From Mesodorylaimus sp. YZB2_4 (Eukaryota; Nematoda; Enoplea; Dorylaimida; Dorylaimidae), in contig JASANH010000812.1 in assembly GCA_030248295.1 (NCBI GenBank), positions 434,001-498,000 on the forward strand: a stretch of 64,000 nucleotides of DNA, read 5' to 3'. Below, one piece after another: positions 8,054 to 57,805 of the stretch (the stretch's first letter is position 1; each line of letters starts with the position of its first letter). The position numbers and the translations under genes are program-made. The notes beneath the pieces are model-generated. The model was not told the DNA's origin. It saw nothing but the letters and a program-made list of their open reading frames with translations, and ran no database searches.

Positions 8054-8743
8054 TGTAAAACGTGCAAAGCACAAAAAGCTCCGCAGAACAAATCCGATCT
8101 CCAAAAAAATCGAACCTGGCATTCTTTAAAAAATGCATTTTTCATTTGGCTTGAATTCATTAGTAAAAGATGTATTTCTAATCAAAGTATTTGACCCGGT
8201 CAATATCTGATCTGGTTCTCGTTTGCCCTTGTACCAATTCACATTTGAGATGTTAGATAACCCATATTGATTGCCCTTCGCTGCAACCCAAACAAGGTTG
8301 TCATTCAAGGGCGAAAAAATTTTCTAAAATTAAGAGATCTACAAAATATTTTGGTTTTGATAAACTATAGATTCACCCCGAATGAGTTGTAAATGGACTC
8401 TGCTCCAGAATGTGTGTGAATATGAGCGAGCGCGCCTCCGTTTTGCATGCACAAGTTGAAACCTCTTCCCCAGTTTGCCAGATTGTAACTTTTTGCATAC
8501 AGCGTCCTAGCTGGTTCACCAGGTACATTGGCCAAGTAAAAGCAACGGCCGCCATTAATCACACCATTGTAGTTTTTCTTACAGTCAATTATGAATTTCT
8601 GAGCTGCAAGGAAGATTTTTTTTAGAAACCTACTTTAGAGCCAAATAAAGCAAAATAGAGTAATTTGTTTTAGCTTTACCCGGCTGTGTAAGAATGCAAA
8701 GTAGTAAAAGCCCACAAAAGTGTTCAGCCCTTTTCATCTTCAT
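8054..8743 (-). pseudogene. Decayed C-type-lectin/PAN family copy
   Basis: Three exons align with intact family members: signal exon 8743-8680 (64 nt, phase 1), lectin exon 8603-8377 and lectin exon 8323-8054. The second is 227 nt against 248 in the intact copies at 18784, 25028 and 29465. This is a 21-nt in-frame deletion that removes the CYSDQKS-type segment with the first cysteine. The third is 270 nt against 271: one T is missing in the run before the GD-x2-C motif, and a TAA replaces the codon after KCIF. No PAN exon follows. The promoter region is homologous to that of the copy at 19432, so both come from one duplicated segment. What is seen are the breaks; loss of function is inferred. 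Confidence 0.85.
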
Positions 8744-8836
8744 GAGCAGCTTATCGCAAGCATTTTTTACACCCGTTGGGATTTACTACCCGGCGGGCGT
8801 ATGGCTGTGCAATGCGTCGATCAGTTTGGTGTCCGA

Positions 8837-8853
8837 GGGCAGCTGCTGCTAAC
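8837..8853 (-). promoter_or_regulatory. Shared family upstream element
   Basis: Reads GTTAGCAGCAGCTGCCC on the minus strand, 94 bp before the ATG of the decayed lectin copy. It is the same element found before all intact copies, with one A-to-G change in the core. Confidence 0.5.
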
Positions 8854-9352
8854 AATTAAGAATTTACGAGTATTGATTATTGAGAAACAAAAAGTTTGAT
8901 CGAAAGAATACTCAGCTCCAATTGTCAAACGACGGACTGCTGGCTCGCGTGGGTGGTTTTTATATATTGCAGCGTCACTCTTTAAACTTCCATATCCAGG
9001 CCGTGTGCCAAATAGGATGACTTAGTTCGAATATATCGATCGAGCGGGTACGTTTCTGGAAAAGTCTGTCTTTATTTCGAAAAGCTGTTATTATTAAAGA
9101 CGGGAAACTTTCGGGGCCATCCAGCATAGTAGCTTGAGATGATCAAAGTTTAATTGCAGACAACACGTTGATACGGACTACTGAATATAAGCCTGAGGAG
9201 GCGTGCATTGTTTTGAAGCGGTCAAACCAAGAAATATATACGGGGACTTACCATGTGAGAGAGTCAGCAGCACGTACTTTGCAGTGTCTTCAATAAGTTA
9301 GTTTTTGAATTTGGAAATAACGCGAAATTTCCTGGTTTCTTTTCAAACAAAG

Positions 9353-9595
9353 TGCAACACTTTACTGAAGTTCCATCGAAATGTGTGAAGGAAACTGTCG
9401 TGGTATCTCTGACTACCACTTCACCGCAAAGTTGCGCCGACGAGTGCGCAAAATATATCTGGTGTCGCAGTTTTAACTGGTTTCAATTGACTGATAAATG
9501 TTTCTTTTCTTGTTAAATTTTCTTGGTATAGCCCCGAAGCTGACCAATTTGACCAGGCGGATACCGCGTGCTTTCATGCAACCTACGATACGTGA
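9353..9595 (+). pseudogene. Orphan decayed PAN/Apple exon
   Basis: An acceptor-like TTTTCAAACAAAG precedes a frame FTEVPSKCVKETVVVSL followed by CADECAKYIWCRSFNW, which is clearly the N-terminal half of the family PAN exon. After the KC at about 9500 an insertion of about 10 bp gives a TAA. The frame then resumes as SPEADQF...ATYDT and stop. The piece is 243 nt against 236 in every intact copy, a net +7 frameshift. No lectin exons lie upstream on this strand, so it is a displaced exon or the remnant of a deleted copy. It points away from the decayed copy at 8743. Confidence 0.8.
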
Positions 9596-9599
9596 TTAT

Positions 9600-10375
9600 T
9601 GCTTTCGTGCACGGCTCGATTAAACAACGGATTATAAAAAAAGCACTGAACACATATACTTGCAGCTTTATGCATAAAATCGTTGCCTTTGTCTGAGCTT
9701 TAGTTTCTTCTTTGGCTGTTCGGTTTTTTAAACTGAGGTATAAGATTTCTCAGACGTGTCCGATGAATGCGTTTTGTTTGTAATTCCCGTTGCTGTCTTT
9801 TTGAAACCATGGATGGCTGCAATTAAATTTACTTCCATGAATTTGATAAAACGTTCGAGTTTTTTTTCCTCCAAATTAATACTTGTGCCGTTTGTGCTAG
9901 TGTTCTCACGACCAGTATTACTTGTGCATGTGCATACTATCTACATGCTAGGGTTCTTGAAAACTGAAGTAATTCGAGTGAGATCAGATCACGACGTGAA
10001 CTATAGTCGTACATTCGAGTCGGCATTCCCTCATGGAAGAAAGGCCGTAAAAGCTTATTCTGACGCGCGAAAGAAGGCATTATTCCTGTCGACAATCCTT
10101 ATCGATTCCTTGCACCTCTGAGTCTCACCCACAGGGGACGACTTGCAGTGGGAGCAAGTCGCCTCTCAAATGGAAAGTGGCTTCTTTATGAGTCACCTTA
10201 TAGTTACGACGATCCCTTGTTGATTGCTGTATTTTCTCTAACGACTAGGGCTGAGACGCTACATCAATCGCGCATGCGTGTATGCGCCGGCACTGTTTGG
10301 CACGCTTTGGCCAGGCAATGGTGAGGAAGATATGTGAGTTTGGGTTCAGGAACTACCGGCAAAGCCGCCACATCC
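9600..10375. other. Non-coding spacer
   Basis: A 121-codon frame at 9756-10121 has no motif, no splice context and no paralogue here. I do not call it a gene. Confidence 0.35.
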
Positions 10376-10379
10376 AGGT

Positions 10380-10545
10380 CCTGCAGAACTACGCTGACGA
10401 GAACATCCGAAGTGCCAATCCCCGGTGACGAAGATTGGTTTGAGAATCATGAAACTTTACACGCAGGCTGTGGTTAAGGAAACCAGTACCACCTTCTTTG
10501 AGTGGGAAGATGAAAGCTTAACGAGAGGACAGTCTCAGCTGTCCA
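10380..10545 (+). repeat. SINE fragment
   Basis: Contains CCAATCCCCGGTGACG-AG-TTGGTTTG and the GAGGACAGTCTCAGCTGTCCAA body. These are collinear with the SINE at 21070-21230 (CGATCCCCGGTGATAGAGGT..., GAGACAGTCTCGGCTTTCC). The head is missing or degraded. Confidence 0.55.
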
Positions 10546-10559
10546 ACGCTATATTTTTA

Positions 10560-10690
10560 GAATTAGTCTCAAGATCAAGGTCATAATTCTGTTAGAACCC
10601 CAATTTGCCGACCCTTGATCAAAGTCAGGGTCAAGGTCAGAAAATTATTTGGGTCTTGGTCAAGGTCGTGGTCAGGTCAGAGGAGAAAAA
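10560..10690. repeat. GGTCAAGG simple repeat
   Basis: Imperfect tandem GGTCAAGG/GATCAAGGTC units. Similar to the stretch at 34850-34945. Low-complexity, no coding potential. Confidence 0.6.
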
Positions 10691-10699
10691 CCCCTGGTA

Positions 10700-11760
10700 T
10701 TTCGAGCATTATATAGCACCCACAGGGCCCAAGAAAGAGCAAAGCGTGGTGGGCCCCTGGGTTTGGCAGGCCTGGTGGTCAAAGCACATGACCAACTACG
10801 CTCTTCTTACACATCACTCATTTTTGACCTTCTTTATTTCAAAACGCCTCTTTTTAACAAATTTTTAGAGCACAGACTTGAGAGAAGACATTTTAATGGT
10901 GCATTTCTGTCTGGTTTTGTGGTCGTTCAGTGTGTGATGTTCGACCGTCGAGTTCGCCTATTGTGATGAATTCACGGGTACGTTGGTGTCAGGCATGGCA
11001 ACTGTTGCCAAGTTCCGGGCAAATCGAATTTCTAAAATTATTATGACAAAATTACCTAATAAATCGATGACATTTGAAAAAAGGCTTAATAAGTGCTGCT
11101 TTGTGTTGAAATTGAAAGGAAATTGCCCTTTAACGACTAATTGTAAGTTGCGTCATCGGTCTTGGTCCTTCTATTCATCAAATTTACACAAGGGTATGTA
11201 TTCGGTACTCAATAAACGAAACTTGGTTGAAAGATGGCGCCCCCTCTCGCTTTACCGCTCTACGATTTCATGGGTTGCTGTCGCAGTCACAGAGAGTCGC
11301 CGTCGGCTTACACGCAACGACAGCAGATTCCTGGTTAGTTTTCTGAGCTTGTACTATCAAGCATATTGCATGCGTCATTTTACCTTGAACTACAATAGTG
11401 ATGAAATTTTGCGTCTACGTTAATTTGATTAAACCTTAGCATGTTTAGTTTCGTGAGTGCGTGTTATCATAGCAACTGAGACAGATTTTCTACGATTTTG
11501 ACCAAAGACGCGCAATCAAAATGAAAAACATACCAAAAAACGTGATCGATCCGCAATGCCAGCTCTCTAGCAACCCAGTATGATCGCTGCGGGCAGCATA
11601 CATAGATGATTCGCGCACGTTTCATTACGAGCTACATAATTTTATTTTGGTGCCACCAGCTCTACAATACCTGAAAAATGTACGGCCAGCAATGACGCCA
11701 GTCTCACCCAATTTCCGAAAATATCCCTCATGTATTTCTTGTGAACTATTGCATGTGCTA
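10700..11760. other. Non-coding spacer, possible 142-codon ORF
   Basis: An open frame from an ATG at 10995 to 11423 (about 142 codons) has a basic, unremarkable sequence. There is no domain, signal peptide or splice support. I list it only as unexplained sequence upstream of the lectin gene at 11905. Confidence 0.3.
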
Positions 11761-11764
11761 ATTT

Positions 11765-11904: not shown

Positions 11905-12962
11905 ATGACACTATCTGAGAAGATCTGTGCTCTACTTTTCTGTACGCTTGTTCACACCGACTCAGGTAATGCATTCTTTTCAATCATATAATACGGACAT
12001 TCAAAATTATCTTTTCTCTCATGTTTTACAGTCAATAATGCAAAAAAACACGGTTGAAAAACTTGTTTCCTTATTTGCAGTGCACGGTCAGAAATGTTAC
12101 TCTGACCAAACGGCTTTTATCGACGAGTGCAAGAACGACTACGATGGTGTGGTGAATGGTGGCCGCTGCTTCTATTTGGCCAACGTAAAAAATGAGCGAA
12201 GCGCGAGCCTGCATGGCAAGCAATACACTGTGGCGAACTGGATAGCTGGTTTCGATTTGTGCAGGCGAACAGGAGGCACATTTGCGCATGTCCACACCCA
12301 GTCTGAAGCCTCGTCTGTTATCAAGAACTTGTTCGGGGTGACGCTGAGCTTATGAATAGCCAAAGATAACAATATGTTTTTACAGTGTATTATTTTAAGG
12401 AAAGTTTAATCTCAACCGGAATCAATGCTTGGGTAGCATCGAGGAGTAATTTTGAAGGGCTGTCAAACCTGGAAAAAGTACGTTGGCTCAATGCTGATCA
12501 AACAAGAGCCAAAAATTTGACTGGCGTCAACACACTGTTAAGAAACTCCTTGGATGTAACTGAGCCAAACAACAACGAGTCATGCATATTCATTAGAAGC
12601 TCGAAGAATTCGTCTTTTCAGTTTGCAGATCTCTCTTGCCCCAAACAAATTTTTCTATTATGCACGCAATACAGTAAGCTAGCAATATAAACTTATTTAG
12701 CAGAATTGATTGCTGCTTTTCTTTAGACGGACGGCAAAATTTCAGTCAAGTCCCATTGGAATGCATGAACGAATCAGTCGTCGTATCGCCGAGTGTAAGT
12801 TCTCTTCAAGCCTGCACCAATCAGTGCGCCGGCCACATCTGGTGTCGGAGTTTCAACTGGTACTGGTCCGATAAAAAATGCGAGTTATTTTCATGGTCCA
12901 GCGATGACGCTGCATACTTCAAGAGCGATCAATCTTGCACACTCTATACGTATGATCCATGA
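11905..12962 (+). CDS. Secreted C-type-lectin-like + PAN/Apple protein, copy 1
   Basis: Four exons join in matching phases: 11905-11965, 12081-12337, 12400-12673 and 12727-12962, giving 275 residues. Exon 1 encodes a signal peptide (MTLSEKICALLFCTL...). Exons 2-3 form a lectin-like fold: VNGGRCFYLANV, WIAGFDLCRRTGGTFAHVHT, then WVASR, a FADLSC segment and CTQYS at the end. Exon 4 is a PAN domain with WCRSFNWYW and six cysteines, ending YTYDP. This is the only copy carrying an EPNNNESC segment, which resembles the EPN plus E-x-C of Ca-dependent sugar-binding lectins. The WND motif is replaced by FAD. The exon 2 donor GTGACG and the exon 3 acceptor (TTTTAAG) are weak, so that junction is the least sure. 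It probably acts outside the cell; the ligand is unknown. Confidence 0.85.
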
Positions 12963-14245: not shown

Positions 14246-14249
14246 TGCG

Positions 14250-17607: not shown

Positions 17608-19432
17608 TCATGGCAAATAAGTGTAATGAGTGCAAGATATATCATCTTTGAATTTATCAGCTTCAAAACTATACCAAGAAAATAACTCGCATGATTTGGC
17701 TGATTCATACCAATTGAAACTTCGACACCAGATTTGTCTAGCGCATTTATTGGTGCAGGCTTTCAATGAAATGACTTTCCTAGATTCCACAACTGCCTCG
17801 TCCATGCATTTGGATGGGATTTTGATGAAGTCTTGCTCCCCATCTAAAAACCCCTTTACTTGAAAATTTTTTTATAAATCGACGTGCACTCTAGAATCGA
17901 TATCAGAATTAAGAAAACCATGATACTGTATTTAGATTCACCACTCACGTTTTAGGTGGGGTTAGGCAAAATTTTAGACCCGGATCTCAATTATTCAAGA
18001 AGTCGAGAATTTGATTTTCCGAGAAGTCCTTTTGGAATCAACATATTCGACTTTCTTGCATTGGTGCCGGAGGTCTAGAGTTTTAATTATCCCCACTAAA
18101 ACTTGGGTGCTGAATCTGAATATCATATTCTTTTTTCAACATTTCGACATCGATTCTGGAGTGTACTTCGTCTTAAAAAGAGTAATTGACTTTTGCTTAC
18201 TGTAAAACGTGCAAAGCACGAAAAGCTCATCAGAGCAATATCGATCTCCAAAAACAATCAAGCCTGGCGCTCTCATAAAAATGCATTTTTCACCATACTT
18301 GAATTCACTAGTGACAGATTTATTTCTAATTAGAGTATTAGGTCCGGTCAAAGTCTGATCTGGTTCTCCTTTGCCCTTGTACCAGTTCACGTCTGAGATG
18401 TTAGATAGCCCATACCGATTGCCTCTCGCTGCAACCCAAGCTAGGTTGTCACCCGATGCCTTAAAAGCTTTCTGAAATAAAGAGCAATGCAAAAAAGTCG
18501 TTTTGTCGCAAAATTAAAATTATACTGTAGATTCACCCCAAACGAGTTGTAAATGGACACGGCTTCGGAATACGTGTGAATATGCGCAAATGTGCCTCCG
18601 GTTTGCACGCACAAGTCGAAACCTTTTCTCCAGATCGCCACAGTATAACTTTTTCCATCCAAACTCCTCGCTGCTTCATTTGGTACATTAGCTAAATAAA
18701 AGCAACGGCCGCCGTTGACCACACCGTCATAGTTGCTTGTGCAGTCGTTAACGAATTCCGCGTCGTTGGAGAAACATTTCTGAGCTGAAATAATTTTTTC
18801 TAGCATTAAAGACAGTCTTTCTGTAAGATTCGACCCGCGGGAAACATAGACGACATAATTTTCGCAAATTTGGATGTCAAATGTAAGCAAAAGTATTGAA
18901 AATGAGGAAAATGTTGAAAGCTAGATGGATTGGGCATATTTCAGGTTGGTCCAACCCTGTCTCCCAGTTACTGTAGCACAAAGGAACAGGGGGTCTGAAA
19001 GTCGTCAAGGACCTTCAACTTTGGTGCCCAATATCTCGAGGTAGGTGAAAGAAAAAACCTTTTCGCGACGTGCGTTCGATTCCTCATTCATTTGCGATCA
19101 CGCTGGTGTGCCGTTGATCGTTTTTTGCAATAATCCCGTGAAAATCGAGTTTGCACAAAAAAGCACTGTTGCGTCACTATCACCATTCATGGGTGCATCG
19201 AATGAACAATAAAAAAGTGGGGTCAAAAAGTGAAGCTTTTTCCTTTATGTTTCCTATGGATCGAACCTAACAGTAAAGCCTGTCTTTTAAAAGCTTTCAA
19301 GGCTTGTCCGACGCAAAACCTTTTTACAGCCAAATAAAAGAGAAATACGTACAGTACTTTGGTCTTACCTGAATTAGGTTGTGTAAAGATGCAAAATAGT
19401 AAGAGTCCACAAAAGTGTGCAGGCCGTGTCAT
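17608..19432 (-). CDS. Secreted C-type-lectin-like + PAN/Apple protein, copy 2
   Basis: Exons 19432-19369, 18784-18537, 18471-18201 and 17843-17608 join in phases 1, 0 and 1 to give 272 residues. Exon lengths 64/248/271/236 equal those of the copy at 24827. Exon 1 encodes a signal peptide (MTRPAHFCGLLLFCIFTQP). Exons 2-3 have GGRCFYLANVPNE, WRKGFDLC, GGTFAHIHTYSEA, WVAARGN, GEKCIFM and FGDRYC in place of the lectin WND-x2-C. There is no EPN motif, so Ca-dependent sugar binding is unlikely by the usual mode. Exon 4 is a PAN domain with WCRSFNWYE and six cysteines. Intron 1 (584 bp) contains a copy of repeat X (18905-19230). It is closest to the decayed copy at 8743, with which it shares promoter sequence. 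Confidence 0.88.
18080..18185. repeat. Dispersed repeat in intron 3
   Basis: CACTAAAACTTGGGTGC...AATATCAT...TTCGTCTTAAAA recurs at 51435-51525. The copy here lies in the last intron of the lectin gene. Short, no coding potential. Confidence 0.5.
18905..19230 (+). repeat. Repeat X, inserted in a lectin-gene intron
   Basis: Matches the first 400 bp of the composite repeat at 2020: GGGCATATTTCA, AATATCTCGAG, GCGACGTGCGTTCGATTCCTC, ATTTGCGATCACGCTG, CATGGGTGCATCGAAT. It is antisense to the host gene and accounts for the enlarged first intron. Confidence 0.65.
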
Positions 19433-24826: not shown

Positions 24827-26512
24827 ATGGCGAAAATCCTGCTGGTTTTTGCCCTGTTATTCTTGCTGTTCTTAAACATCTTCGATGCAGGTATCTTACC
24901 GATAGCTTTATCATGGAATTTTATAGCCGAAACTGCGATACATACTCGAAAACTAAGTGATGACTGGCTTCAGTGAATGCGAGTACTCTAAGGCACTAAA
25001 CGAAAATAACGTTCCTATCTTTTTCAGCTCAGAAATGCTACTTCAACCAACACGATTTCCGCACAGACTGTGAAACCAACTACAAAGGTGTGGTCAACGG
25101 TGGTCGTTGCTTCTACTTGGCCAATGTACCTGACGAACCAACAAAGACACTAAATGGGGTGAATTATACTGTAGCAGAATGGATTCGAGGCTTTGAATTG
25201 TGCAGCATGACAGGCGGAGCATTTGCCCAAATCCACACGTATAGTGAAGCGTCGTCCATTCACCATTCGTTTGGGGTAGGGCTGTACTCCCAGGTCCGAC
25301 ATTGGCTTCAGAACTCGACCAAACCCATCTTTTTGGGCTGACTTTTAGGTGCACTACAGTTGTTTTTGGTTTAGAGACCCTATTAAACCCAAATTACCAT
25401 ACTTTCCCTCCCACAGCTAGCAGCAGCATGTTCTTTCGGCCTGAAGCATATTCACCGTATTATGTTCATGTTTCACCGCATGAGGGTGGAGGACCACAAA
25501 ACAGGACACGGAATCATTCACACGGCCGCGAGTCGAACGCTTGCATAATGCGCACCTGGTGTCACAGGGGGACGGCGAGCCATCAGCCCGCGAGACGGGC
25601 GGATTAATCGCTTTAAATCAAGGCTTATATGTTGGAGGTTTTGGGGTGAGAGTAAATTTTAAACCACCGCCATCTGGCGTCCATCCGTGGCTTTGAGATT
25701 CTAGTTCGATAGAACAGAACATGATATCAGTGCACAATTTGCTAACGAGAGACCACACAGTTACGGCTCTGAATCACGATCGCAGAGCACTGGCAAACTA
25801 AAAACTAGCGGCTAACAAGCTGAGAGCTTTAGGTCAATTTTTTTAATGTGGGTTTTGGGTTTGGGCTGAGTTTGGATCCAGCAGCGAAGACGTTGTCGGA
25901 CCTGGTTAGTCCTCTCCAAAGAAGACTTTTTAAAATGCATCTCAATTTAGAATGGTTTCGATATCGCGACTGGAAATATCGCTTGGTTAGCAGCGAGGGG
26001 TAATAATACTGGGCTGTCGAATTTGACGGATATTCGTTGGCTTGATAAAGAGGGGACGCGAGATCATAATCTGAGAGGAGATAATACCCTCATAAGGAAT
26101 AGGTCATTCGCAGAGGAGAAAAGCAAAAACGAGTCGTGCATATTTTTGAGAGGACCGAGCCAATATATTTTTGGGGATCTCTCCTGCAAATTAGAGATTT
26201 TTGTACTTTGCTCGTTCTACAGTAAGTAACTGAATGCCAAATTTTTTTTGAAAACGAATTATCTTCAGTTTCTTAGGCGAGGAGCAAGACTTCACGCAAG
26301 TAGCATCCAAATGCATGGACGAAACGGTTGTGGTGTCTCTGAATACTACATCACCGCAAATCTGCACAAACGAATGCGCGAGGTACATGTGGTGTCGTAG
26401 TTTCAACTGGTATCAGATCACTGGAATGTGCGAGTTATTTTCGTGGTACAGTCCTGAAGCTGACCATTTCAAGGAGGATCCATCTTGCTTGCATGTGACC
26501 TACGACCCTTGA
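24827..26512 (+). CDS. Secreted C-type-lectin-like + PAN/Apple protein, copy 3
   Basis: Exons 24827-24890, 25028-25275, 25951-26221 and 26277-26512 join in phases 1, 0 and 1, giving 272 residues. Exon 1 is a strong signal peptide (MAKILLVFALLFLLFLNIF). The lectin-like part has KCYF-type QKCYFNQHDF, GGRCFYLANVPDE, WIRGFELCSMTGGAFAQIHT, WLAARGNNTGLSNL, NESCIF and FGDLSC where classical lectins have WND-x2-C. Exon 4 is a PAN domain (MWCRSFNWYQ, LFSWYSPEADHF) ending TYDP. Intron 2 (675 bp) carries a SINE on the opposite strand, while intron 3 is only 55 bp. A secreted or pericellular role is inferred from the signal peptide and domains; no ligand can be named. Confidence 0.88.
25430..25615 (-). 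repeat. SINE inside a lectin-gene intron
   Basis: The minus strand reads GCCCGTCTCGCGGGCTGATG, the B-box-like GCGTTCGACTCGCGGCC and then GTGAAACATGAACATAAT. The tail matches the SINE at 55730-55900 (GTGGTAAAACATGAACATGG). Confidence 0.6.
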
Positions 26513-29146: not shown

Positions 29147-30318
29147 ATGGCAAGTAGTGAGGGGATCTTGAAAGTCATTTTTTCACTTGCTTTCCTCCCC
29201 AAAGACACAAGTAAGCCAGCAGACATTTATTCACTTCACAAAAGCCTTTGTCCCTGCATCAAAAAATTAAGTCGTGTTTTTATCATGGCTGTTCAGAATT
29301 AGCGAAAAAGCCATGACCAATCCCAATTGAATATATTCTTCTTTTATATACAAACTCTTGCCTGTTGTAAGCTTATGAAAGTTCCTGAATGTCAAAACGT
29401 ATCGTAGTATTGAGCAGCTGAAATTTTTTACAGTCTTTCTTGACCTTGAGTAACTTTTTCAAAGCTCAAAAATGTTACTCCGATCAAAAATCATTTATTG
29501 ACGATTGTGAAAGCAGCTACAGTGGTGTGGTCAATGGTGGTCGTTGCTTCTATTTGGCCAGCGTACCAGACGAACCAGCAGCACCCCTGGGTGGTGCAAA
29601 TTACACTGTGGCCAGTTGGACGGACGCATTCGATATGTGTAAGCTGACAGGGGGCACATTTGCGCGAATCCACACTTTCAACGAGTCGTCGTCTATCCAC
29701 AACTCGTTCGGGGCAAGGCTCCAGGGTCCCTTTTTAGCGACTACCCTGTTGCAGTGCATTGTTTTAGAAATATTTCACTGCCTCAAGTGAATCCAGAGCT
29801 TGGATAGCAGCGAAAGGTGGCCCTGATGGGTTGTGGGCCCCAGCAGAGATATTTTGGTACAATGGAGATGCTGAACCAGAGCAGAATTTGAAAGGATCCA
29901 ATACTTTGATAAGGAACAGGTCAAACCTAGTAGAAGGAGAAAATGAAGAGTGCATATTTATGAGGCAGCCGAGCGATAATTTTTTCGGAGATCACTTCTG
30001 CGACAAAAAACGTTTTGTATTATGCAATATAAAATGTAAGTTACAGTTTCCGCAAAACAAAAACTTCAATTGATTTTTTTAGATGAAGACCAAGATTTTG
30101 TTAAAATTCCATCAAATTGCATGGACGAGACGATTGTTGCATCCCCGAGTGTCACATCCTTGCAAGACTGCGCCAATGCTTGCGCCAGCAACATCTGGTG
30201 CCGCAGTTTCCATTGGTATCAGCCAACTCCAAAATGCGAGCTTTTTTCTTGGTATAGCTTCGAAGCAGACAAATTCAAGATGGATCCATTTTGCACTCTT
30301 TACACTTACATACCGTAA
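29147..30318 (+). CDS. Secreted C-type-lectin-like + PAN/Apple protein, copy 4
   Basis: Exons 29147-29210, 29465-29712, 29768-30035 and 30083-30318 join in phases 1, 0 and 1, giving 271 residues. Exon 2 is exactly 248 nt as in two other copies, which requires a GC donor (GGG|GCAAGG) for its 55-bp intron. The lectin-like half has QKCYSDQKSF, GGRCFYLASVPDE, WTDAFDMCKLTGGTFARIHT, AWIAAKGG, NEECIFM and FGDHFC. The PAN exon has WCRSFHWYQ, with H in place of the N seen elsewhere, and CELFSWYSFEADKF, ending YTYIP. The exon 1 product (MASSEGILKVIFSLAFL) is a weaker signal peptide than in copies 2 and 3. Expression and splicing of the GC-AG intron are unproven. Confidence 0.85.
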
Positions 30319-35704: not shown

Positions 35705-35949
35705 CTTCTAACGACTGGGGTCAGCACTAGGCTGAACAAGTGATATATGGACAATGATCGATCATCCGTAGGGGCCTGATTAGTGATGCTCCCCATGCTA
35801 AATAGTTATCGATTATATGTAAGAAAGCTGATCGGTGATGATCAACTGTCAGGTATCATGTGATGCAGTTAGGGCCCAGCAATCAGCGATTCAGTATTGA
35901 CGATCATATGCGGAGTGGGTGATCAAGCTGCCCCACATCTCAGTCACTG

Positions 35950-37044: not shown

Positions 37045-39587
37045 TCATTCAATTTCACCCAAAAAGATCTTCTTATCGCTGCTAGCTGACAAAACTGGAA
37101 AAAGAAAAAATATTTCACTCCTCTTCCACCAAAACTTATTAAAAACCTTACTAATTTTTTCAGTCGGATGGAAATCAGTTTGATTGATCGATCCTTGATG
37201 GCCAGGCAATTTATACAAAATACGTCTACTGGACACTTCCCAAATATAGACATATCGATCTGCTGACCCACACGATACTTGCGAGCTGTCCGGTGACCAA
37301 CAACAGCGCAGCAGATTCTAAAACATCGAAAAATATGTGCCAAACCACAGACCCCCCCCCCAACATCATACTTTTTCAAAATTATGTTGATGTCCCAAAA
37401 ACACTTTCACGCACCGCTGTTCTGGTGCGAATGGCCGAATATCCCATGCTCGTACTGAAAATATACAATGTAAGAAAAACCTAAACCTACCTTTCTGGAC
37501 TATTCAGACAGGACGATGTGCAAATGCTTCTTATGCCAAAAGCCATGGAAGCAAAGAGCGCTAAAATTAGCGCTAAAACTTATTCCAACATCTCTGACAA
37601 GAAAACGAAAACTTAGCTGAAACTTTGAAGGATATTTTGTCTGGATTTCCTTGGTGCCACGATTTTTAATTGTGCAACTGTGTCTCTATTTCTTTGGCTT
37701 TCATGACAAAAATTTCATTTTCGACTTCGAATGCCCTGTACTACATCAAATTCGAATATCTATCCATACGGCACTTCGGCACAATGGCCCCATGGCACAC
37801 TGTGCAAGGGCACCACAAGCCAAAACTAACTTCCCAGATTCCAAAAGCCAACTCACAGGTCATATCCATTCCATTGGACAATACATGCGAACCATCCGGA
37901 CTCAATTCCAGACCCGTGATCGTATCCGTATGACCCTGCATCTCATACGCCAATGCATCCTTTCTTAAATCCCATACCTGAAAGGCACACAATCCATCCC
38001 CACATGCCATCAATCCCCAGCACTCCTCACTCACCTTCAAATCATTATCGATTCCACCCGAGATCACTTGTTCAGCCGTGTCGTTGAATGTGACTGCAGT
38101 GGCCTGGTACTCCGTCTTGAACGTGTGCACTGCATCTCGTCGTCGACTGTCCCACACCTTGATAGAACAGTCGTCGCTGGCCGTCGCCACTAATTGTGGT
38201 CCACGTCGAGCGGGATGACACGAGTTAACAATGCTGGTGTGTCCTTTCAGTCGACGTATGCACGCTCCAGTCGCCATGTCCCACATTCGAGTGGTCTTGT
38301 CTGTCGAACACGACCAAAGAACTCTGAAAAATAGAATATCCCTTAGCACTCTGCTGTGGCACACACTATGGAACACAAGACAATGCCATTCCGATGGCCC
38401 TGTCTGCACACCACAGTTGCACTATGGGATGTCATTGTACACTGGGATGCACAGAGAGAGGTACCGACAGAACGTGGCACTATAGCACATGATGCAGAGT
38501 GCTACAGCGCAGTGCTATGGCACACTGGAAAAGTAATGGCACTACGGAACACTGTTCCAAAGTACCGGAGCTCTACAGTATATCACACTGCAAGAACTCT
38601 GCACCTTGGTTCTAAAGCTGACTGAAGCAAGTGCCGCGGCACTTTGGCACACCGGCACACTATGCAAAAAAGCCAAAGCTCCACATCACTGCAAAACTCT
38701 GCACATTAGTTCTACAGCTGACTGTGCCGAAGTGATCCTGCACTAAGCACACTTCGGCACACTGCGCTAAATCATAATGGCGCAATGGCTCACTGCGCCA
38801 CTAATCACGGTACCATACCCCAAGACACGCCCGAAAATAAACAAAAACCATACTCGCTATCCACAGAAAACTGAAGTTCCATAATCGCACCGCCGTGTCC
38901 AGGCAGCATGGCGAAATTCTCGCACTCGCCATAAACGTTCCAAAGCACTGAAAAATCCGAGCAATAACATTCAATCAAAAACAGCGAACACCACACTTAC
39001 ATATCTTGCGGTCAAATCCACCCGACGCCAAACAAGTTCCATCTCGACTAAATCTGGACGAGAATATATCGCCTTCGTGGCCTTGTAGAAGCATAATTGG
39101 GGCCAGAAGGCTGGACGTTCGACGAGGGCCCTAAATTTATAGACACGCAACAGTGACATCATCACCAGGCATGCTAGTGACCACTTCAGACAACTGGGTG
39201 TCGAGTTAGAAAAGAACGAAGTTTGTAATATTTCATCACAAAACAAGTACAAAAAGTAAGTCTTGAGTGGGATTCGAACCCACGTCTCTGCAATACCTAT
39301 CTGTACCAGACCAATAATCCAAGAAGCGAGGGTTCGAATCACATTCAAGGCTACTCTTTTTGGTACAAACCTTGATCGAAAATTGTACACATGACTATAT
39401 AGTGGATTCATGTTTAACCTCACCGCTGCAGAAATTTGAATTTAGCGCCAAAACTTCCTCCACCCGCAGGTAACACCATGTCTCTTACCACAGCAACAAC
39501 CTCCTGCCTGGCCCTTTTCGCCGCCGGTACCAAAGCGGAATTCATGTCACTGCCGACTCGTTTCGTCGTCGCGTCCATATCTGGCAT
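37045..39587 (-). CDS. SNRNP40: U5 snRNP 40-kDa WD40 protein
   Basis: Eight exons: 39587-39489, 39130-39001, 38947-38854, 38323-38035, 37977-37857, 37454-37372, 37317-37152 and 37094-37045. Phases agree throughout, giving 343 residues (human about 357). Seen: ALVPAAKRARQE near the N-terminus, APIMLLQGHEGD, LLWNVYGECENFA, CSTDKTTRMWD, RLKGHTSIVNSCHPARRG, TFNDTAEQVISGG, VWDLRKDALAYEMQGH, WDIRPFAPEQRC, SADRYVYIWE, RILYKLPGHQGS and the terminal SASSDKKIFLGEIE. These are the seven WD blades of the family in order. The protein is a scaffold of the U5 snRNP in the spliceosome. Four introns are 53-57 bp; intron 1 carries a tRNA-like repeat and intron 3 a degenerate GGCACACT tract. An acceptor-like GTGTGATTTCAG ends 25 bp before the ATG, which fits trans-splicing. 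Confidence 0.95.
38340..38820. repeat. GGCACACTG-type degenerate repeats in SNRNP40 intron 3
   Basis: Irregular repeats of GGCACACT, GGAACACAAG, GCACTATGG and CTACAG words fill a 530-bp intron, while neighbouring introns are about 55 bp. Frames of 84-89 codons here are artefacts. Confidence 0.55.
39245..39350 (-). repeat. tRNA-like repeat in SNRNP40 intron 1
   Basis: The minus strand reads TTGGTCTGGTACAG...AGAGACGTGGGTTCGAATCC, with an A-box-like and a clear B-box sequence. A second GATTCGAACCCTCG lies nearby on the same strand. No closed cloverleaf with a 7-bp acceptor stem could be drawn, so I call a tRNA-derived repeat rather than a tRNA gene. Confidence 0.5.
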
Positions 39588-41999: not shown

Positions 42000-43100
42000 A
42001 TTATTCCGTAGGAATTTCGGATCGGATTTTTTCGTTCTCGACCAACGCCTACGCCACCGTATTTCTCACCCCTTCAAAATAATTCACAGTCGTTTTTCTT
42101 CATGACCACGGGAGTCGCTTTTCTGTTTCGAGTCTAGAAGTTTCAATCAATTCGCTGATCAATTCATTTTGATGATTTAGTTCCGAATTTGCGATTTAAG
42201 CTGGTCGAAAAAACGCTCAAAGAGCACGTGATGTTCAGGTACGAGTCAATGAGAGGGCTAACAAAACAACCTGCATACCACATCGCACGAATAGCGTCTA
42301 CTCATATCACGATGGATTCCAAAAACGCCCTTTTGCTTGCCCGAATACGACATACGAAAGGAAAACTTTTGGAAAACGTTATTTCATCAAGTAGTGAAGT
42401 TTTAAAAGAATCGAACCGTTAATGAAAGTTTTGACAGGATTTCCTTGACCTGCATAAATTTCCTTTCCAGCTTCCAAGTTTTTAGTTAGCCTTGATATAA
42501 GCATTTATAATTAATTTTTAAATATAAAACTGCACTGTGAGCATGCTTTTCATTTACAGTTTTACGTTTACTTTGGCTTTTGTTGGCAATCTTTCTCCCG
42601 CATTGTCAGTTCAGAGATTTCATCTGCCTGTGACGCTGCTTCACTGATCACTGATACAAACAGTGATTGTCTGTCAAAACTGTAAAGCTCCTTTGCGCAG
42701 AAGTGGACGCCTGTTTTTCTTCATTCATTCCCACATTTTTCAAGCATTTTATGATTGTATGATTGTCTTTGTCCATTTGACCTTAAAAATTTGGCTAAAC
42801 TGTGCTTTTTCTGTATATTTATTGGAGCATTAGCCTTGTCGAGGCTCGATATCTGTACTAACCTACGCATTGGGCGCTTGGAGCTCTTTTGGCTAGGTAT
42901 GCAGATTGGGGTTCTTGTGATATCTTTCTTGTCGAGAAGTATTCGAAATTTTCTGCGAAAATCCAAACCCATATTTTAAAAATTATAAGGAGTGACGATT
43001 AAATGGGATCAGGCACCGCCTAAACCATATAGAATTCCTGTTTTAACCCCAGAGAAGATCGAATTTAAGTCAGATCGATCAGATTTTGTTCGAAGGGTTT
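42000..43100. other. Spacer between NOSIP and the coiled-coil gene
   Basis: A 77-codon plus-strand frame ending at 42422 has no ATG at its 5' end and no domain. The plus-strand frame 42755-42979 is hydrophobic (IFIGALALSRLDIC) but unsupported. This region probably contains the NOSIP promoter. Confidence 0.35.
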
Positions 43101-43129
43101 TAACTAACAAAATGCATGTTTCAGGCGCG

Positions 43130-43984
43130 ATGGCTTCACATCTTTCTCAAAGCAACACCATTGTCTTATCACTGCGCCAATTGTCCCATAAAAATCATGC
43201 TCACCACTATCAACAGCTTCTGTTCCAAATGATGGACAATCTGAGTGAAGTATTTGAAATTTTCGGACCAATCGATGGAAACAGAATGCAAGAAATGAAG
43301 AGGCAAGTAGCCGAAATCAGAACAGAATTATCGAATATGAGAAACCAAGCAACGACGCGAATGCATCAAACTGAAGCCTCAGTTGATCAACTAAGTCAAA
43401 AATTGGTGAACATTCAAGATCAAGTGCAGCAACGAGATGAGCAGGCTCTACAATTTCAATCAGAGGCTCTACAATTTCAATCAGAGGCTCTACAATTTCA
43501 ATCAGAGGCTCTACAATTTCAATCAGAGGCTTTACAAAGTTTGAAACTAAAACGCGTCGAGTCGGAAAATTACTTGGATTCTCAACAGACAGCTACTCAA
43601 AAGCTATTAAATCTTCCAGCCTTTGTGAATTTGAATCAAACATATTATTCTTCTTATCGAGAAGAACTCGAAACCCAACAAGAAACGATTTTGGCGACAT
43701 TTGTAAAAACAGCGTGTCCATGCAACAATACAGCGGGTCTATTCACAAGTGGCCTTAACAAATGGGTGAATAAATTCAAGCAAGAACGAGAAAACATGAA
43801 ACAATTTCTCTGGGCTCTCGATCAAACGTTGGTCAATTTGAACCAAATCATGTATTTGCGTGATCTGATTACAATTAGCGAAAACTACATTAACAATTCT
43901 AAAGAAGCCATACCCGAAGTCCAATCGGCGGGTGAAAATGAGGTGATGGATGTGGATCTGGATCCGGATGAATCATTTTATTAG
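43130..43984 (+). CDS. Coiled-coil protein with DESFY C-terminus, gene 1
   Basis: An intronless frame of 284 residues from the ATG at 43130. I chose this ATG because a splice-acceptor-like CATGTTTCAG ends 5 bases before it and because the second family member also starts MAS. The frame is open further upstream, where another ATG lies at 43112. Composition is Q/E/N-rich with long heptad patterns: FQMMDNLSEVFEIFG, MKRQVAEIRTELSNM, VDQLSQKLVNIQDQV. Residues about 104-131 contain four tandem ALQFQSE heptads encoded by near-identical 21-nt units (43440-43525). Two cysteines lie at CPCNN. The C-terminus is VDLDPDESFY. No known family recognised; a structural or filament-associated role would be an inference from the coiled coil only. 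Confidence 0.75.
   Translation: MASHLSQSNTIVLSLRQLSHKNHAHHYQQLLFQMMDNLSEVFEIFGPIDGNRMQEMKRQVAEIRTELSNMRNQATTRMHQTEASVDQLSQKLVNIQDQVQQRDEQALQFQSEALQFQSEALQFQSEALQFQSEALQSLKLKRVESENYLDSQQTATQKLLNLPAFVNLNQTYYSSYREELETQQETILATFVKTACPCNNTAGLFTSGLNKWVNKFKQERENMKQFLWALDQTLVNLNQIMYLRDLITISENYINNSKEAIPEVQSAGENEVMDVDLDPDESFY
43440..43525 (+). repeat. 21-nt coding tandem repeat
   Basis: Four units of GAGGCTCTACAATTTCAATC plus one base, virtually identical at DNA level. They encode one coiled-coil heptad each. Near-identity points to recent expansion, probably length-polymorphic. Confidence 0.85.
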
Positions 43985-49039: not shown

Positions 49040-50395
49040 ATATTCTGTCAACATATTTTGAACGCGCGTGTGGGCCTCAATTTGACCTCAGGATATGTAA
49101 TTTAATCTTCCTAAATTTCATGTGCAATTAGTATTGTAGATGTTTAACTCCTAAATACTGTAGTTTTCGATAGTTTAATTTTTCGTTGAGGTTTTTGGCA
49201 AAGCTTTGATAATGGATTCTATAGTAGACAGAAATTATGACACAAAACTCTTTCGCAAAGAAAAAATGAGAAAGATAGAAATCAGTTTTTCAAGCGAAAA
49301 TTTCGATTGCATCTACGTCTAAACAAAGGAGGTTTTTCCACGCGTAAAAACTGGCGGGAATTAAAAAGTTCTTTCTTGCAGCAAAGTACGGAAGTCTTTA
49401 ATGCTCAAATGTTTTTACACTTTTTTTTGGCCTGATTACAATGCATATCCTTGCAAAAAAGGTAAAATATGGTTTCAAATGCACATTGACCAGCATTTGT
49501 TACAGGCTTCTTGTGGGCTTCAAACGTACATACTATATCGACATGTACTGTATGGCTGCAGAAATTGGTTTCACTGTATAGCATATTAGACCATATCGTT
49601 CAGATTTCCTTCTTATATCTGATTAGTCACTGACATGTCCACTAAACTTTACATGTGGATCATATCAGGATGTTAAGGGGAGGGTAATTTACCGCCAGTT
49701 TTAAATTTGAAATTTTGCAGCGAATATAGTTCCCGCCCATTTTTTAAAGCAGGATTCCTGTTCTATTTAGACGGAACCACCAGCGGTCGGTCACTAATTT
49801 TCTAACGATGAATTGACAATGTGCACAGGATAAATGCCTTGTTCACTCATGTAACTCACCGTCCATGTAAAGGCGGGACTATTTCATAGACCTAATTCAC
49901 AAACACTACAACATGCAAAATTTGAATTTCCCGCTTTAAGCTGGCTTTTACCGTTTTACATAGCTGGAGATCGAAATCGTTACCCAAGCATGCGTGCGCG
50001 TTAAGTAGTAGGAATTTCTTGTCATTATTCTTCAGTTTATTATCGTATTTTTTTCAAAAAGCGTGTCTGACCAGCGACAACAAATGCGCCTCTGTATGTT
50101 AAATGAATGACCTTACGTTTGGTGTTCGGTGCCCTTGGAGTGCGCCTTAAAGTGATAGGCTAACAAAATCTAGCAACAGCAATAGCGCACAAGTTTGTGA
50201 GCACGTCCACTTTTAATCCTTGTAAAACTGTCATAAGCGACATAGCGGGAAATTTAAATTTTGCGTTTCACGGGGCTTGCATAATGGTCCAAATGACATA
50301 TGCCATAAACCCTGACTCACCTGACCCCAGCACCCCCACCCCCACTCAGACTTTTGAAATCAAATCACCCTAGAGTCTATACCTGTATCTTTACC
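49040..50395. other. Spacer upstream of coiled-coil gene 2
   Basis: AT-rich. Two GCGGGA/TTCCCGCC-bounded stretches appear at 49690-49750 and 49915-49960. GTTAAATGAATGAC near 50098 matches the 44061 and 47142 repeats. No gene supported. Confidence 0.35.
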
Positions 50396-50417
50396 AGATA
50401 TTTCAAAATACACTGAC

Positions 50418-51215
50418 ATGGCATCAGCCCAAGCTCGAAGCATCCGATCACCATCTGTTCTTCAATCATTCGCAAGATTACAGGAGCAAAGTAGTCAAAA
50501 TCGACAAAACTCAGAATATTTTCAACAACAATCAGATAATTTATTGGATTTAGAAGAATTTATTGGGCGAACAGCACGCGACGAGGCAACACAAGAAATC
50601 GATACTACGCGTACTGAAAGATGTGACAGTCTGAATGAAATGTGCACCAGAGCTGATCAACTGTGTCGAGTCATTGATCGAGAATTGATTAGAGCGCAAA
50701 ATGAATATGTCGATTGGGAAAATAGGATACACGAAGCAAGGCGAGCTCATCGAGTACCACATCCAACGAAAATGCGAGCTTTATTAGCACAATTAAACGA
50801 GTCGAATCAAGAATTATGGGATCAGCAACAAAACCAGAAAAATTCACAATTTCCATCGCATTTCGATGATAAAAGATATTTTTCACCTGATCATCTGAAA
50901 TTAATCACGGAAAAAGAGCAATTGCGCGATTTACAAGCTCGTGTCATCCAAGCTGCCATCCTCGGTCAACAGGATTCCGATCCCAGATGTCGAAATTTTC
51001 GATTCTTCGAAGTTTCGATGTCAATCGCGTCTAGAAAAATCGATTATCAAGAACGACTCGATCGAGTTCTTGTCTTAACCAACGATCTTGGCAAGTGGCA
51101 ATGTTTGAATGAGCATTATCGAGAATATTTCGAAGGGTGGAACTCGGCTGCGACTAATGGAGGCACAAATGAGATCGGACTAGCCTTGGATACGGATGAA
51201 AGTTTTTATGCTTAA
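50418..51215 (+). CDS. Coiled-coil protein with DESFY C-terminus, gene 2
   Basis: An intronless 265-residue frame from ATG 50418 to TAA 51215. It is Q/E/R-rich and largely helical in pattern: SVLQSFARLQEQSSQNRQNS, TRADQLCRVIDRELIRAQNE, MRALLAQLNESNQELWDQQQ, LITEKEQLRDLQARVIQAA. Cysteines are few. It shares with the gene at 43130 the MAS start, lack of introns, the same strand, and a C-terminal NE-[VI]...LD-x-DESFY, here followed by one alanine. The middle regions cannot be aligned by eye, so the relation is ancient or convergent at the ends. No known family recognised. Confidence 0.75.
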   Translation: MASAQARSIRSPSVLQSFARLQEQSSQNRQNSEYFQQQSDNLLDLEEFIGRTARDEATQEIDTTRTERCDSLNEMCTRADQLCRVIDRELIRAQNEYVDWENRIHEARRAHRVPHPTKMRALLAQLNESNQELWDQQQNQKNSQFPSHFDDKRYFSPDHLKLITEKEQLRDLQARVIQAAILGQQDSDPRCRNFRFFEVSMSIASRKIDYQERLDRVLVLTNDLGKWQCLNEHYREYFEGWNSAATNGGTNEIGLALDTDESFYA

Positions 51216-54950: not shown

Positions 54951-54954
54951 GTTA

Positions 54955-55025
54955 TCGGTATCGGCCGATAGCCGATAACGCAATTATCGGCCGATATTAT
55001 CGGTCAACCGATATATCGGTCGGAC
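54955..55025 (+). repeat. TATCGG palindromic repeat, copy 2
   Basis: GCCGATAACGCAATTATCGG matches copy 1 in the same orientation, 1.4 kb apart. Confidence 0.6.
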
Positions 55026-55029
55026 CTGG

Positions 55030-55725
55030 CTGTTTAGCCCAGCCGAACAGACGCGCAACGTTAAGCGGGCAACTTTGATCGTTCATAACTCGACAACAAA
55101 TCAACAAAAATGCACAAAATTTTGGGGATGAGCTATGTTTGCCATGACCAATAATCGTGCAAAATTTTGTTGGAAACGGCTCAGCCGTTCTCGATATCCA
55201 TAATGCACGTTTTGCTGTTCCAGAGATGACGTCGGAAGACGACGAAGTACTAGTCTTGTCTACAGCAATAACCACTAAAGCTACGGACAAAAGAGTTGGT
55301 TTTTCTGAAAGCTCTGATCGCGCGAAGTATTCTTTTGAGGGTGATTTTAAGATTCGAGCTAAGTAATTTCTTGTGCTCGAAAAACTGGTTTTTAACGCAT
55401 ACCACCAGCAGGCGGAATATTTTTATTAGCCGTGAGCCGTGAGCGTGGGCCGTAAGAGGTGTTTCCGTTAGCCGTAGTACCCTTCCTGACCAAGACGAGA
55501 GTTCTGTTCTGTTTAGTTCGGTTGAATTTTTTTGCTTTAGTTTGGCGGATTAGTTGGTTTGCTTTATGTTGTTTTGATTTCTAAGCCCAAAGTTTTTGAA
55601 AAATCAACTCGCGATCTGCATTGTTGCATCTAATTCACACATAAAAAAGGGGTCGAAAATTGGATCTTGGCAACCTATGTACAGTGTGTATGTATATGTT
55701 GCACATACATACAGTACATATGTTG
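55030..55725. other. Non-coding spacer
   Basis: Overlapping plus and minus frames at 54997-55366 show no domain and shadow each other. A short CCGTGAGC tandem stretch lies near 55430. No gene supported. Confidence 0.3.
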
Positions 55726-55729
55726 CCAG

Positions 55730-55960
55730 GCTCGTGGCCTGGTATGTTAGGCGTCTGCCTCTCACGCCAGGTGCGCACTTACGTACGGGCGAATGTTCGA
55801 CTCGTGGTCCGGCATGTCGTTTCGTGTGAAATGTGTCCCTTCACCCTCGAGTGCGCATAAGCATTTGGTGATGTGGTAAAACATGAACATGGGTCGAACC
55901 TCACAGAAACCCTGTCTTAACACCAAGTGGCCGAAGATTAGTCGCGCCAGTGTGGGCAAA
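55730..55960 (+). repeat. tRNA-derived SINE
   Basis: GTCTGCCTCTCACGCCAGGT plus GCGCAC, the B-box-like AATGTTCGACTCGTGG and a tail GGTAAAACATGAACATGGGT. Same family as 20085 and, on the minus strand, 25430-25615. Confidence 0.65.
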
Positions 55961-55964
55961 TGTC

Positions 55965-56560
55965 TGTGGTTAGCTTGAACTTAGGAACCTTGCCGAGCCC
56001 GCCAAGTTATCAGGTGTCTTCGTAACCCTTCCTTCTTGTTCATCCGTTTGTGCTCAGGGCACGTTTGCGTCTGATTGCATTATGCAGCGGTCAGATAAGT
56101 CGGCCTTCATTGACCCGTTGCTTGCCATTCTGTACTGGCTCGGTGTGGAAGCTTTTTTGATTCGCTGGTATGCTTTTTCTGACCAGCATATAAAAGCTAA
56201 AACACCTCAAACTATAATCGAAAAGTCTGTAACACTCTTCATGGCGGGCCACACGAGAAAAGGGGGGAAGCTTCTCACATTTTGTGAGCAGGCAGAACGT
56301 ACGAGCCAACCATTTCTGTTTGACGCCTCCAGATCGTCAAGGTGATTGTCTGCGTCGCGATCACTTATTCATTCATTTGAATTCCACCCTACATCCGAGC
56401 AATTGCATGCACTTTAGGATCGCTCTCGCGTACACCCGAATACGAAATACCAATATGACGTAAAAAAAGAAGCTTGGACAGAACATTAGCAAAGATTTGG
56501 TAATTATCTTCCACTCAACTGTGACTGTGACTATGTACAATAACAAGAGGCTTGAAAATT
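55965..56560. other. Non-coding spacer
   Basis: An 87-codon frame (56082-56345) has no recognised features. Nothing else supported. Confidence 0.3.
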
Positions 56561-56567
56561 CTGGTCA

Positions 56568-56584
56568 GTTAGCAACAGTTGTCC
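56568..56584 (+). promoter_or_regulatory. Shared family upstream element
   Basis: GTTAGCAACAGTTGTCC, 111 bp before the ATG at 56695. It is conserved even though this copy is 26 kb from the nearest other member. Confidence 0.6.
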
Positions 56585-56694
56585 GAAGGCACGAGGCTGT
56601 CATTGCATCGAAAAATGTGGCCCCGCTTCAGTGTTGCTGCTTCTGTATAGCGCACACCACTTGTTCATCAAGTGCAGCCATTTTTCATGGTGAA

Positions 56695-57805
56695 ATGTCG
56701 GAATCGAAGTTGTGGATTCACGCATTATTATCAATTTTTATTTTCGTGTCCACTAAAAAAGGTGCGATAAGGCGTTTTCTGCATGTACAGTAAACAATAT
56801 ACAATGCCCCAGCAAGACATTTCCGTTGTCTTTTCCATTTTGACACAGCCTCGTGCTCCATATGTTATTACCAACTAGCTCGCATTTTATGTTGTTTTAA
56901 TGATCTTGCATATCGACTGCACATGACTTTTTTGCAGCTCAGAAATGTTACTCCAGTCAAGAGGCGTTCACTAACGAGTGCACCACCGTACACAAGGGTG
57001 TCGTGAATGGTGGTCGTTGCTTCTATCTGGCCGCTGCAGTACCGGGGGAGCCAGAAATGAAACTTAATGGGACGCCGTACAGTATTGGTGGATGGAACAA
57101 CACCTTTGCCAAGTGTAATCGCACTGGGGGTACTCTTGCGCAAGTCCACACGTATTCCGAAGCACAGTCCATACGCATTCGATTCGGGGTATGTTATTGT
57201 TTTCCAATAGGAAACGTCAATGCATGCAGTAGAGGACGTTTCAGAAAGAGATTATGTTTAGGCTGGATGCACAGCTTGGGTAGCAGCGAAAGGCGGTCCA
57301 GATGGGCTGTCAAACTTGACATATGTTCATTGGCTCGATGGCGATGGGGCACATGATAAGATGTTGACTGGAGACAATACGTTGATAAGGAAAGGGGCCA
57401 ACACAACTGAGTATAAACCGAATGAGGAGTGCATATGTTTAACAGTATCCGGCCAAATAATATACGGGGACATCCCATGCGGCGGCCAAAAATTTGCGCT
57501 GTGCACTGTTTTCAGTAAGTTGATACACATCCTCTTCGAGAAGACATTGAATCTTCCTAGCTTTTTTAGACCAAGAACAAAAATTCACCCTAGTCGAATC
57601 GAAATGCATGGAAGAACCGATTGTGGTATCGCCGAGCGTTGATTCTCTTCAAGATTGCACCAATCAATGCGCTGGTTACATCTGGTGTCGCAGTTTCAAT
57701 TGGTATGACGCGACTAGAAATTGTGAGCTTTTTTCGTGGCATAGCCCTGACGCTGACCGATTCAAGAATGATACATCCTGCTCACATTACACCTACGATC
57801 CATAA
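56695..57805 (+). CDS. Secreted C-type-lectin-like + PAN/Apple protein, copy 5
   Basis: Exons 56695-56761, 56938-57188, 57262-57514 and 57570-57805 join in phases 1, 0 and 1 to give 268 residues. The signal peptide (MSESKLWIHALLSIFIFVST) is followed by QKCYSSQEAF, GGRCFYLAAAVPGE (one residue longer than in other copies), WNNTFAKCNRTGGTLAQVHT, AWVAAKGGPDGLSNL, NEECICL with a Cys in place of Phe, and YGDIPC in the WND position. The PAN exon (IWCRSFNWYD, LFSWHSPDADRF) ends TYDP and is 236 nt like all others. It is the most diverged lectin half. The extra cysteine suggests a changed disulfide or a dimer contact. Likely secreted; function unknown. Confidence 0.87.

What the first reader, a model, noticed from the sequence alone, without database searches (positions are those of the whole stretch)
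8054..57805. Dispersed family of secreted lectin-like/PAN fusion proteins with frozen exon architecture
Seen: five complete genes and two broken pieces share four exons with phases 1-0-1. The PAN exon is 236 nt in all five intact copies, and the first lectin exon is 248 nt in three of them. They lie on both strands over 49 kb. Known: C-type-lectin-like and PAN/Apple folds both bind sugars or proteins. Inference: a recently expanded, birth-and-death family suited to recognising variable surfaces (microbes, hosts or mates).
Basis: partly seen in the sequence, partly recalled or inferred. Interest (0 to 1): 0.8.

Follow-up and report, generated by a model that had tools for sequence, protein, structure and literature searches.

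The report
Large secreted lectin-PAN gene family
A nematode genome carries a large, old family of secreted two-part proteins, half C-type-lectin-like and half PAN domain, whose gene layout hardly changes between copies while one exon of the lectin half varies most; this looks like an expanded recognition family, but its ligands and expression are unknown.

Summary
In detail: five intact CTLD-PAN genes and two broken pieces, intron phases 1-0-1, a 236-nt PAN exon in 5 of 5 and a 248-nt first lectin exon in 3 of 5. The host is a nematode, species unidentified. The family is genome-wide: 149 matches to one exon on 65 contigs, a capped lower bound; 73 of 149 have a PAN match downstream, 8 upstream. 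The PAN exon is 236 nt in 26 of 36 stop-free models.

The interpretation needs correction. The window copies are not recent: dS 1.2-2.1, omega 0.18-0.31, scattered in the family tree. Purifying selection dominates; the second lectin exon varies most, and a positive-selection signal there becomes marginal without indel-flanked columns. One close pair shows a homogenised 3' end, suggesting gene conversion. Canonical calcium/sugar motifs are almost entirely missing; conserved cysteines number 13.

Best reading: a lineage-expanded, clec-like secreted recognition family with a constant PAN half. Ligand, expression and taxonomic range are untested.

The parts
8680..8743 (-). c1 (broken): signal-peptide exon
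   Evidence: ATG, hydrophobic stretch, phase-1 GT donor
8377..8603 (-). c1 (broken): first lectin exon, lacks the segment with the first cysteine
   Evidence: E 2.4e-35; boundaries read by eye
8054..8323 (-). c1 (broken): second lectin exon, interrupted by a stop; no PAN exon of the family was found after it on this strand
   Evidence: pieces at E 1.4e-26 and 4.2e-5; approximate ends
9138..9592 (+). c2 (broken): remnants of second lectin exon and PAN exon, split between frames
   Evidence: pieces at E 4.7e-6, 6.2e-22, 5.9e-7; approximate ends
11905..11965 (+). c3 signal-peptide exon (61 nt)
12081..12337 (+). c3 lectin exon 2 (257 nt)
12400..12673 (+). c3 lectin exon 3 (274 nt)
12727..12962 (+). 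c3 PAN exon 4 with stop (236 nt)
   Evidence: PAN_1 2.9e-11; model of this exon, pLDDT 84.7
19369..19432 (-). c4 candidate signal-peptide exon (64 nt), resembles that of c1
18537..18784 (-). c4 lectin exon 2 (248 nt)
18201..18471 (-). c4 lectin exon 3 (271 nt)
17608..17843 (-). c4 PAN exon 4 with stop (236 nt)
24827..24890 (+). c5 signal-peptide exon (64 nt)
25028..25275 (+). c5 lectin exon 2 (248 nt)
25951..26221 (+). c5 lectin exon 3 (271 nt)
26277..26512 (+). c5 PAN exon 4 with stop (236 nt)
29147..29210 (+). c6 candidate signal-peptide exon (64 nt)
29465..29712 (+). c6 lectin exon 2 (248 nt), GC donor after it
29768..30035 (+). c6 lectin exon 3 (268 nt)
   Evidence: Lectin_C 3.4e-5 across exons 2-3
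30083..30318 (+). c6 PAN exon 4 with stop (236 nt)
56695..56761 (+). c7 candidate signal-peptide exon (67 nt)
56938..57188 (+). c7 lectin exon 2 (251 nt)
57262..57514 (+). c7 lectin exon 3 (253 nt)
57570..57805 (+). c7 PAN exon 4 with stop (236 nt)

Best explanation
These are members of an expanded family of probably secreted nematode proteins: a signal peptide (exon 1), one divergent C-type-lectin-like domain split over exons 2 and 3, and one C-terminal PAN/apple domain in exon 4. Shown here by computation: anatomy, copy number, near-constant layout, cysteine pattern, exon-3 variability, scarcity of calcium/sugar motifs. Inferred: the PAN half and exon 2 form a constant scaffold, possibly joined to a partner or a second copy through the odd cysteine, and exon-3 loops contact variable ligands on microbes or other organisms, as is assumed for nematode clec proteins, without the standard Ca2+ sugar site. 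Both modules begin at phase-1 introns, so the fusion may have arisen by phase-1 exon shuffling (inference, from general knowledge of extracellular modules). Copies multiplied in and between arrays, with some loss, and with gene conversion probably keeping the 3' end alike in at least one recent pair.
For: Anatomy. Genome-wide family: 149 exon-2 matches (150 of 275 candidates scored); 73 of 149 with PAN_1 downstream on the same strand within 3 kb against 8 of 149 upstream (both lists capped). PAN exon 236 nt in 26 of 36 stop-free models. Candidate signal-peptide exon upstream in 29 of 36 copies against 8 of 36 in the reverse-strand control. CTLD: Lectin_C at E<=0.1 in 7 of 17 members; of solved-structure profile hits 16 of 18, 7 of 8 and 13 of 18 (all langerin) are CTLDs. 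PAN: 17 of 17 members at E<=0.1, model pLDDT 84.7, weak solved-sequence hits mostly HGF and microneme proteins (17 of 20). Thirteen cysteine columns kept in 33-34 of 34, exactly 13 cysteines in 28 of 34. WND 0, QPD 0, EPN 1, EPD 2 of 34. Exon 3 omega 0.49 against 0.31 and 0.28; entropy 1.97 against 1.24 and 1.26 bits. C. elegans clec proteins are mostly predicted secreted and many genes are pathogen-induced (PMC8051790, PMC8510530, passages).
Against: No expression, ligand or binding data. No other nematode could be searched. The CTLD call is weak: a single-protein search of solved structures gives no CTLD among 9 hits, the best hit is an antibody fragment (E 0.0057; best CTLD 0.018), and Lectin_C is over the cut-off in 1 of 5 window copies. 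Positive selection is marginal on clean columns: M7 against M8 2dlnL 4.9. Three of 20 PAN-profile hits are Kunitz toxins, which are not PAN. The CTLD was not modelled because it spans two exons and the predictor takes only unspliced window protein. The fold search of the PAN model did not complete.
Confidence: 0.5

Rival explanations
1. Secreted effectors of a parasitic nematode that bind host glycoproteins or host surfaces rather than microbes.
For: Probably secreted, large and diversified, 22 of 34 with 4-6 N-glycosylation sequons; PAN domains occur in parasite adhesins (microneme proteins are 3 of 20 weak hits).
Against: The lifestyle of the worm is unknown; nothing ties the family to a host-contact tissue.
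Confidence: 0.2
2. Structural or reproductive extracellular proteins (cuticle, eggshell, gamete recognition) in which exon-3 loops drift under relaxed constraint.
For: Overall purifying selection, omega 0.18-0.31 in the ten window pairs; exon 3 omega 0.49, below 1; an odd cysteine number fits covalent matrix assembly.
Against: More than 100 exon-2 matches in many lineages would be unusual for a structural role.
Confidence: 0.2
3. A birth-and-death family largely without organismal function at present, many copies decaying.
For: 15 of 149 exon-2 matches have stops inside; 7 of 43 models with exons 2-4 have internal stops; two of seven window members are broken.
Against: Constraint on the remaining copies, exactly 13 cysteines in 28 of 34, candidate signal exons in 29 of 36.
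Confidence: 0.1

Closest known systems
Nematode clec (C-type-lectin-like domain) gene family, as in C. elegans
   Same: Large, mostly secreted, CTLD-bearing, sugar binding shown for only one protein (PMC8051790, abstract and passages: 283 clec genes, 288 CTLD proteins, 81% with signal sequence)
   Different: Partner domains named there are CUB, CW, VWA and further CTLDs; the words PAN and apple occur 0 times in the main text of PMC8051790 and of PMC9085898. Here the partner is a PAN domain and the layout is near-uniform.
PAN/apple domain proteins (PF00024; HGF N-domain, apicomplexan microneme proteins)
   Same: PAN_1 over the cut-off in 5 of 5, six conserved cysteines, confident small model
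   Different: Here a single C-terminal PAN follows a CTLD; no family other than PAN and Lectin_C models matched the 17 proteins scanned at E<=0.1.
Canonical Ca2+-dependent C-type lectins (e.g. langerin)
   Same: The C-terminal cysteines and the WND-like segment align (E about 0.1)
   Different: WND is absent in 34 of 34 (FGD in 20), EPN in 33 of 34, QPD in 34 of 34.

Membership tests
[quoted passage not shown]
   Over cut-off in 1 of 5 window copies; E<=0.1 in 7 of 17 members
[quoted passage not shown] either side of the WND segment) | tested here: met
   Cysteine at these four columns in 34, 34, 33 and 33 of 34; the pairing itself is inferred
[quoted passage not shown]
Ca2+-dependent C-type lectin (sugar-binding CRD) | EPN or QPD plus WND motifs | tested here: not met
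   EPN 1 of 34, QPD 0, WND 0 of 34; EPD 2 of 34
PAN/apple domain | Pfam PAN_1 match over cut-off | tested here: met
   5 of 5 window copies; 17 of 17 members of A5 match at E<=0.1
PAN/apple domain | PAN fold with its disulphides | tested here: inconclusive
   Model pLDDT 84.7, pTM 0.77, six conserved Cys; comparison with solved folds did not complete
Nematode clec family | Nematode host genome | tested here: met
   133 Col_cuticle_N matches, all listed as over the cut-off, from 137 candidates
Nematode clec family | Orthology to named clec genes | not testable with these tools
   No other nematode genome is searchable here

The most novel reading that the evidence does not exclude
A semi-variable recognition repertoire: a constant, perhaps disulphide-dimerised PAN scaffold whose 3' end is kept alike between neighbours by gene conversion, while lectin exon 3 escapes homogenisation and diversifies at the loops that would face the ligand.
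Probability: 0.17. Interest if true: 0.65.

Novelty: new variant of a known kind. Interest (0 to 1): 0.4.

Why it matters
If right, it adds a lectin-PAN architecture to the expanded secreted lectin families of nematodes, with a simple natural separation of constant and variable exons. That makes it testable, by population sequencing and binding assays, whether exon 3 is the recognition surface and whether conversion shapes the repertoire.

Tried and rejected
Recent local expansion: rejected for the window copies. Positive selection as a firm claim: rejected. M1a/M2a 2dlnL 44.2, M7/M8 25.7 and M8a/M8 14.7 on 246 columns fall to 10.0, 4.9 and 4.0 on 210 columns away from gaps; of 17 simulations under M7 the largest M1a/M2a value is 9.26, so none reaches 10.0. 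The tree and its relative branch lengths were fixed and the optimiser steps limited. Sugar-binding lectin: not supported by motifs. Species identity: not reached. The exact SL1 24-mer has 0 matches; SL1 and SL2 Rfam searches gave 0 but scored only 50 of 31302 and 48 of 11514 candidates; COX1 is 57% identical to C. elegans and 60% to Drosophila, both recalled. These are hints only. Two mermithid species were considered and their reported sizes do not fit 145 Mb: R. culicivorax assembly 359.1 Mb, M. nigrescens flow-cytometry estimate 814 Mb (passages). IMG/VR scan: no relative among 53 pattern matches. In the literature listings (one search returned none) I saw no title or abstract start on a CTLD-PAN family.

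Rows dropped: of 54 rows modelled (one gene, C12:1081001, appears as L032 and L074), 43 had exons 2-4, 36 of these had no internal stop, 34 went into the codon analyses (L057 and L049 dropped for odd models). Not every one of the 149 places was fetched. L028 and L038 may be haplotypes of one gene.

Full report
What is there. Each intact gene encodes, after a signal-peptide exon (a scan candidate in c4, c6 and c7), a lectin-like domain over two exons and a PAN domain in a last exon that runs to the stop codon. Intron phases are 1-0-1. The PAN exon is 236 nt in 5 of 5; lectin exon 2 is 248 nt in 3 of 5. Profile searches of six frames find nothing else of the family in the window at E below 0.2.

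What the domains are. PAN_1 passes the Pfam cut-off in 5 of 5, and the PAN exon models well (pLDDT 84.7; alignment of the five window PAN exons). The profile's hits among solved structures are weak (best E 0.037): 14 HGF, 3 microneme and 3 Kunitz toxin chains of 20. That the first two are PAN folds is general knowledge. The lectin half is a divergent CTLD: Lectin_C over the cut-off in 1 of 5 and E<=0.1 in 7 of 17 members. Profile hits among solved structures are CTLDs in 16 of 18, 7 of 8 and 13 of 18, with E-values from 0.018 upwards; the rest are antibody fragments and a photosystem subunit, one antibody fragment ranking first. A single-sequence search finds no CTLD among 9 hits. Canonical calcium/sugar motifs are nearly absent: WND 0, QPD 0, EPN 1 (window copy c3), EPD 2 of 34. 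Thirteen cysteine columns are kept in 33-34 of 34 proteins, seven in the CTLD and six in the PAN, and 28 of 34 proteins have exactly 13. An odd number suggests one free or interchain cysteine; this is inference.

Whose genome. The assembly has 145 Mb in 1067 contigs and 133 matches to the nematode cuticle-collagen N-terminal domain, so it is a nematode. The species stays unknown.

How large the family is. The first lectin exon of c5 has 149 matches genome-wide, with only 150 of 275 candidates scored; 66 are below E 1e-20. PAN_1 has 149 matches with 150 of 606 candidates scored. In 73 of 149 exon-2 places a PAN match lies downstream on the same strand within 3 kb; the upstream control gives 8. 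At 30-kb spacing they form 84 groups on 65 contigs, 26 of them with two or more members, in mixed orientation (37 same, 28 opposite neighbours).

How frozen the layout is. Of 43 copies modelled with exons 2-4, 36 lack internal stops; among these the PAN exon is 236 nt in 26 and exon 2 is 248 nt in 18. Exon ends were chosen near profile ends, so the modelling leans somewhat towards constancy. A hydrophobic first exon, often of 21 codons, is found upstream in 29 of 36 copies, against 8 of 36 in the reverse-strand control.

Age and selection. The ten window pairs have dS 1.24-2.08 and omega 0.18-0.31. In a 40-protein tree the five window copies do not group: 5 changes, at least 4 forced by well-supported branches. 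c4 pairs with a C5 copy and c3 sits with C5 and C314 copies, both inside one supported clade; c7 joins C24, C314, C803 and C168 copies; c5 and c6 lie in open forks, their nearest kin unresolved. Copies on C138, C84, C12 and C33 do form local groups. So the window array is old and mixed. Omega over 34 sequences is 0.33; exon 2 0.31, exon 3 0.49, exon 4 0.28. Site models favour a class above 1 on all 246 columns, with 6 of 7 sites at posterior over 0.9 in exon 3, but most of the support is lost on the 210 columns away from indels.

Conversion. In the pair L013/L017 the PAN exon and 3' flank differ by 3.9% and 2.1%, but introns 2 and 3 by 31% and 25% (intron 2 also differs greatly in length); introns against flank, Fisher p 4e-11. 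In L023/L035 exon 3 differs by 11.6% and exon 4 by 2.1%; exon 3 against the two introns is not significant (p 0.12), against introns plus 3' flank p 0.008, so here the 3' end is not clearly homogenised. Silent changes are in excess in exon 3 in these two pairs (p 0.0007 and 0.0005), weakly in two more (0.026, 0.044) and not in the other six of 10 pairs; replacement changes are in excess in exon 3 in five of 10 (p<0.001). Nearest neighbours differ between exons in 21 of 34 genes, which noise among old copies can also cause. Conversion of the 3' end with exon 3 escaping is one simple reading, shown clearly in one pair only, and it weakens any claim of positive selection.

How it probably works. 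A secreted protein with a constant PAN half and a CTLD whose exon-3 loops vary. By analogy with nematode clec proteins (PMC8051790 and PMC8510530, passages) it most likely binds surfaces of microbes or other organisms without the classical calcium site. Function is inferred throughout.

Novelty. The parts are known kinds; the CTLD-PAN pairing at this copy number and with this layout is a variant that I did not see described in the listings or passages that I looked at. Many papers are not in that library, so absence from print is not shown.

Noticed in passing
window 42989-43981 (+) and 50358-51212 (+): Two long ORFs without a Pfam match at E<=0.001, both ending in a D.DESFY-like tail; beyond the tail BLASTP finds no convincing likeness.
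   Followed up: partly
window 60264-61082 (-): Reverse transcriptase domain of a retroelement (RVT_1 5.6e-29).
   Followed up: no
window 35207-35707 (-), 37741-38421 (-): Ordinary genes between the family copies: a lipoyl ligase domain and a WD40 protein.
   Followed up: no
L075 1468-4198 (G000 C73): A COX1 frame with TGA read as Trp, followed by a frame that looks like nad4 (recalled, no call names it), with inverted partial COX1 copies nearby: mitochondrial DNA or an insert of it in a long contig.
   Followed up: partly
own genome, whole: The canonical nematode SL1 24-mer (leader plus GT, recalled) has no exact match in 145 Mb.
   Followed up: partly
window 12400-12673 (c3): c3 alone of 34 has an EPN tripeptide, shortly before the CTLD cysteine of exon 3, about where calcium-binding lectins carry it.
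   Followed up: no
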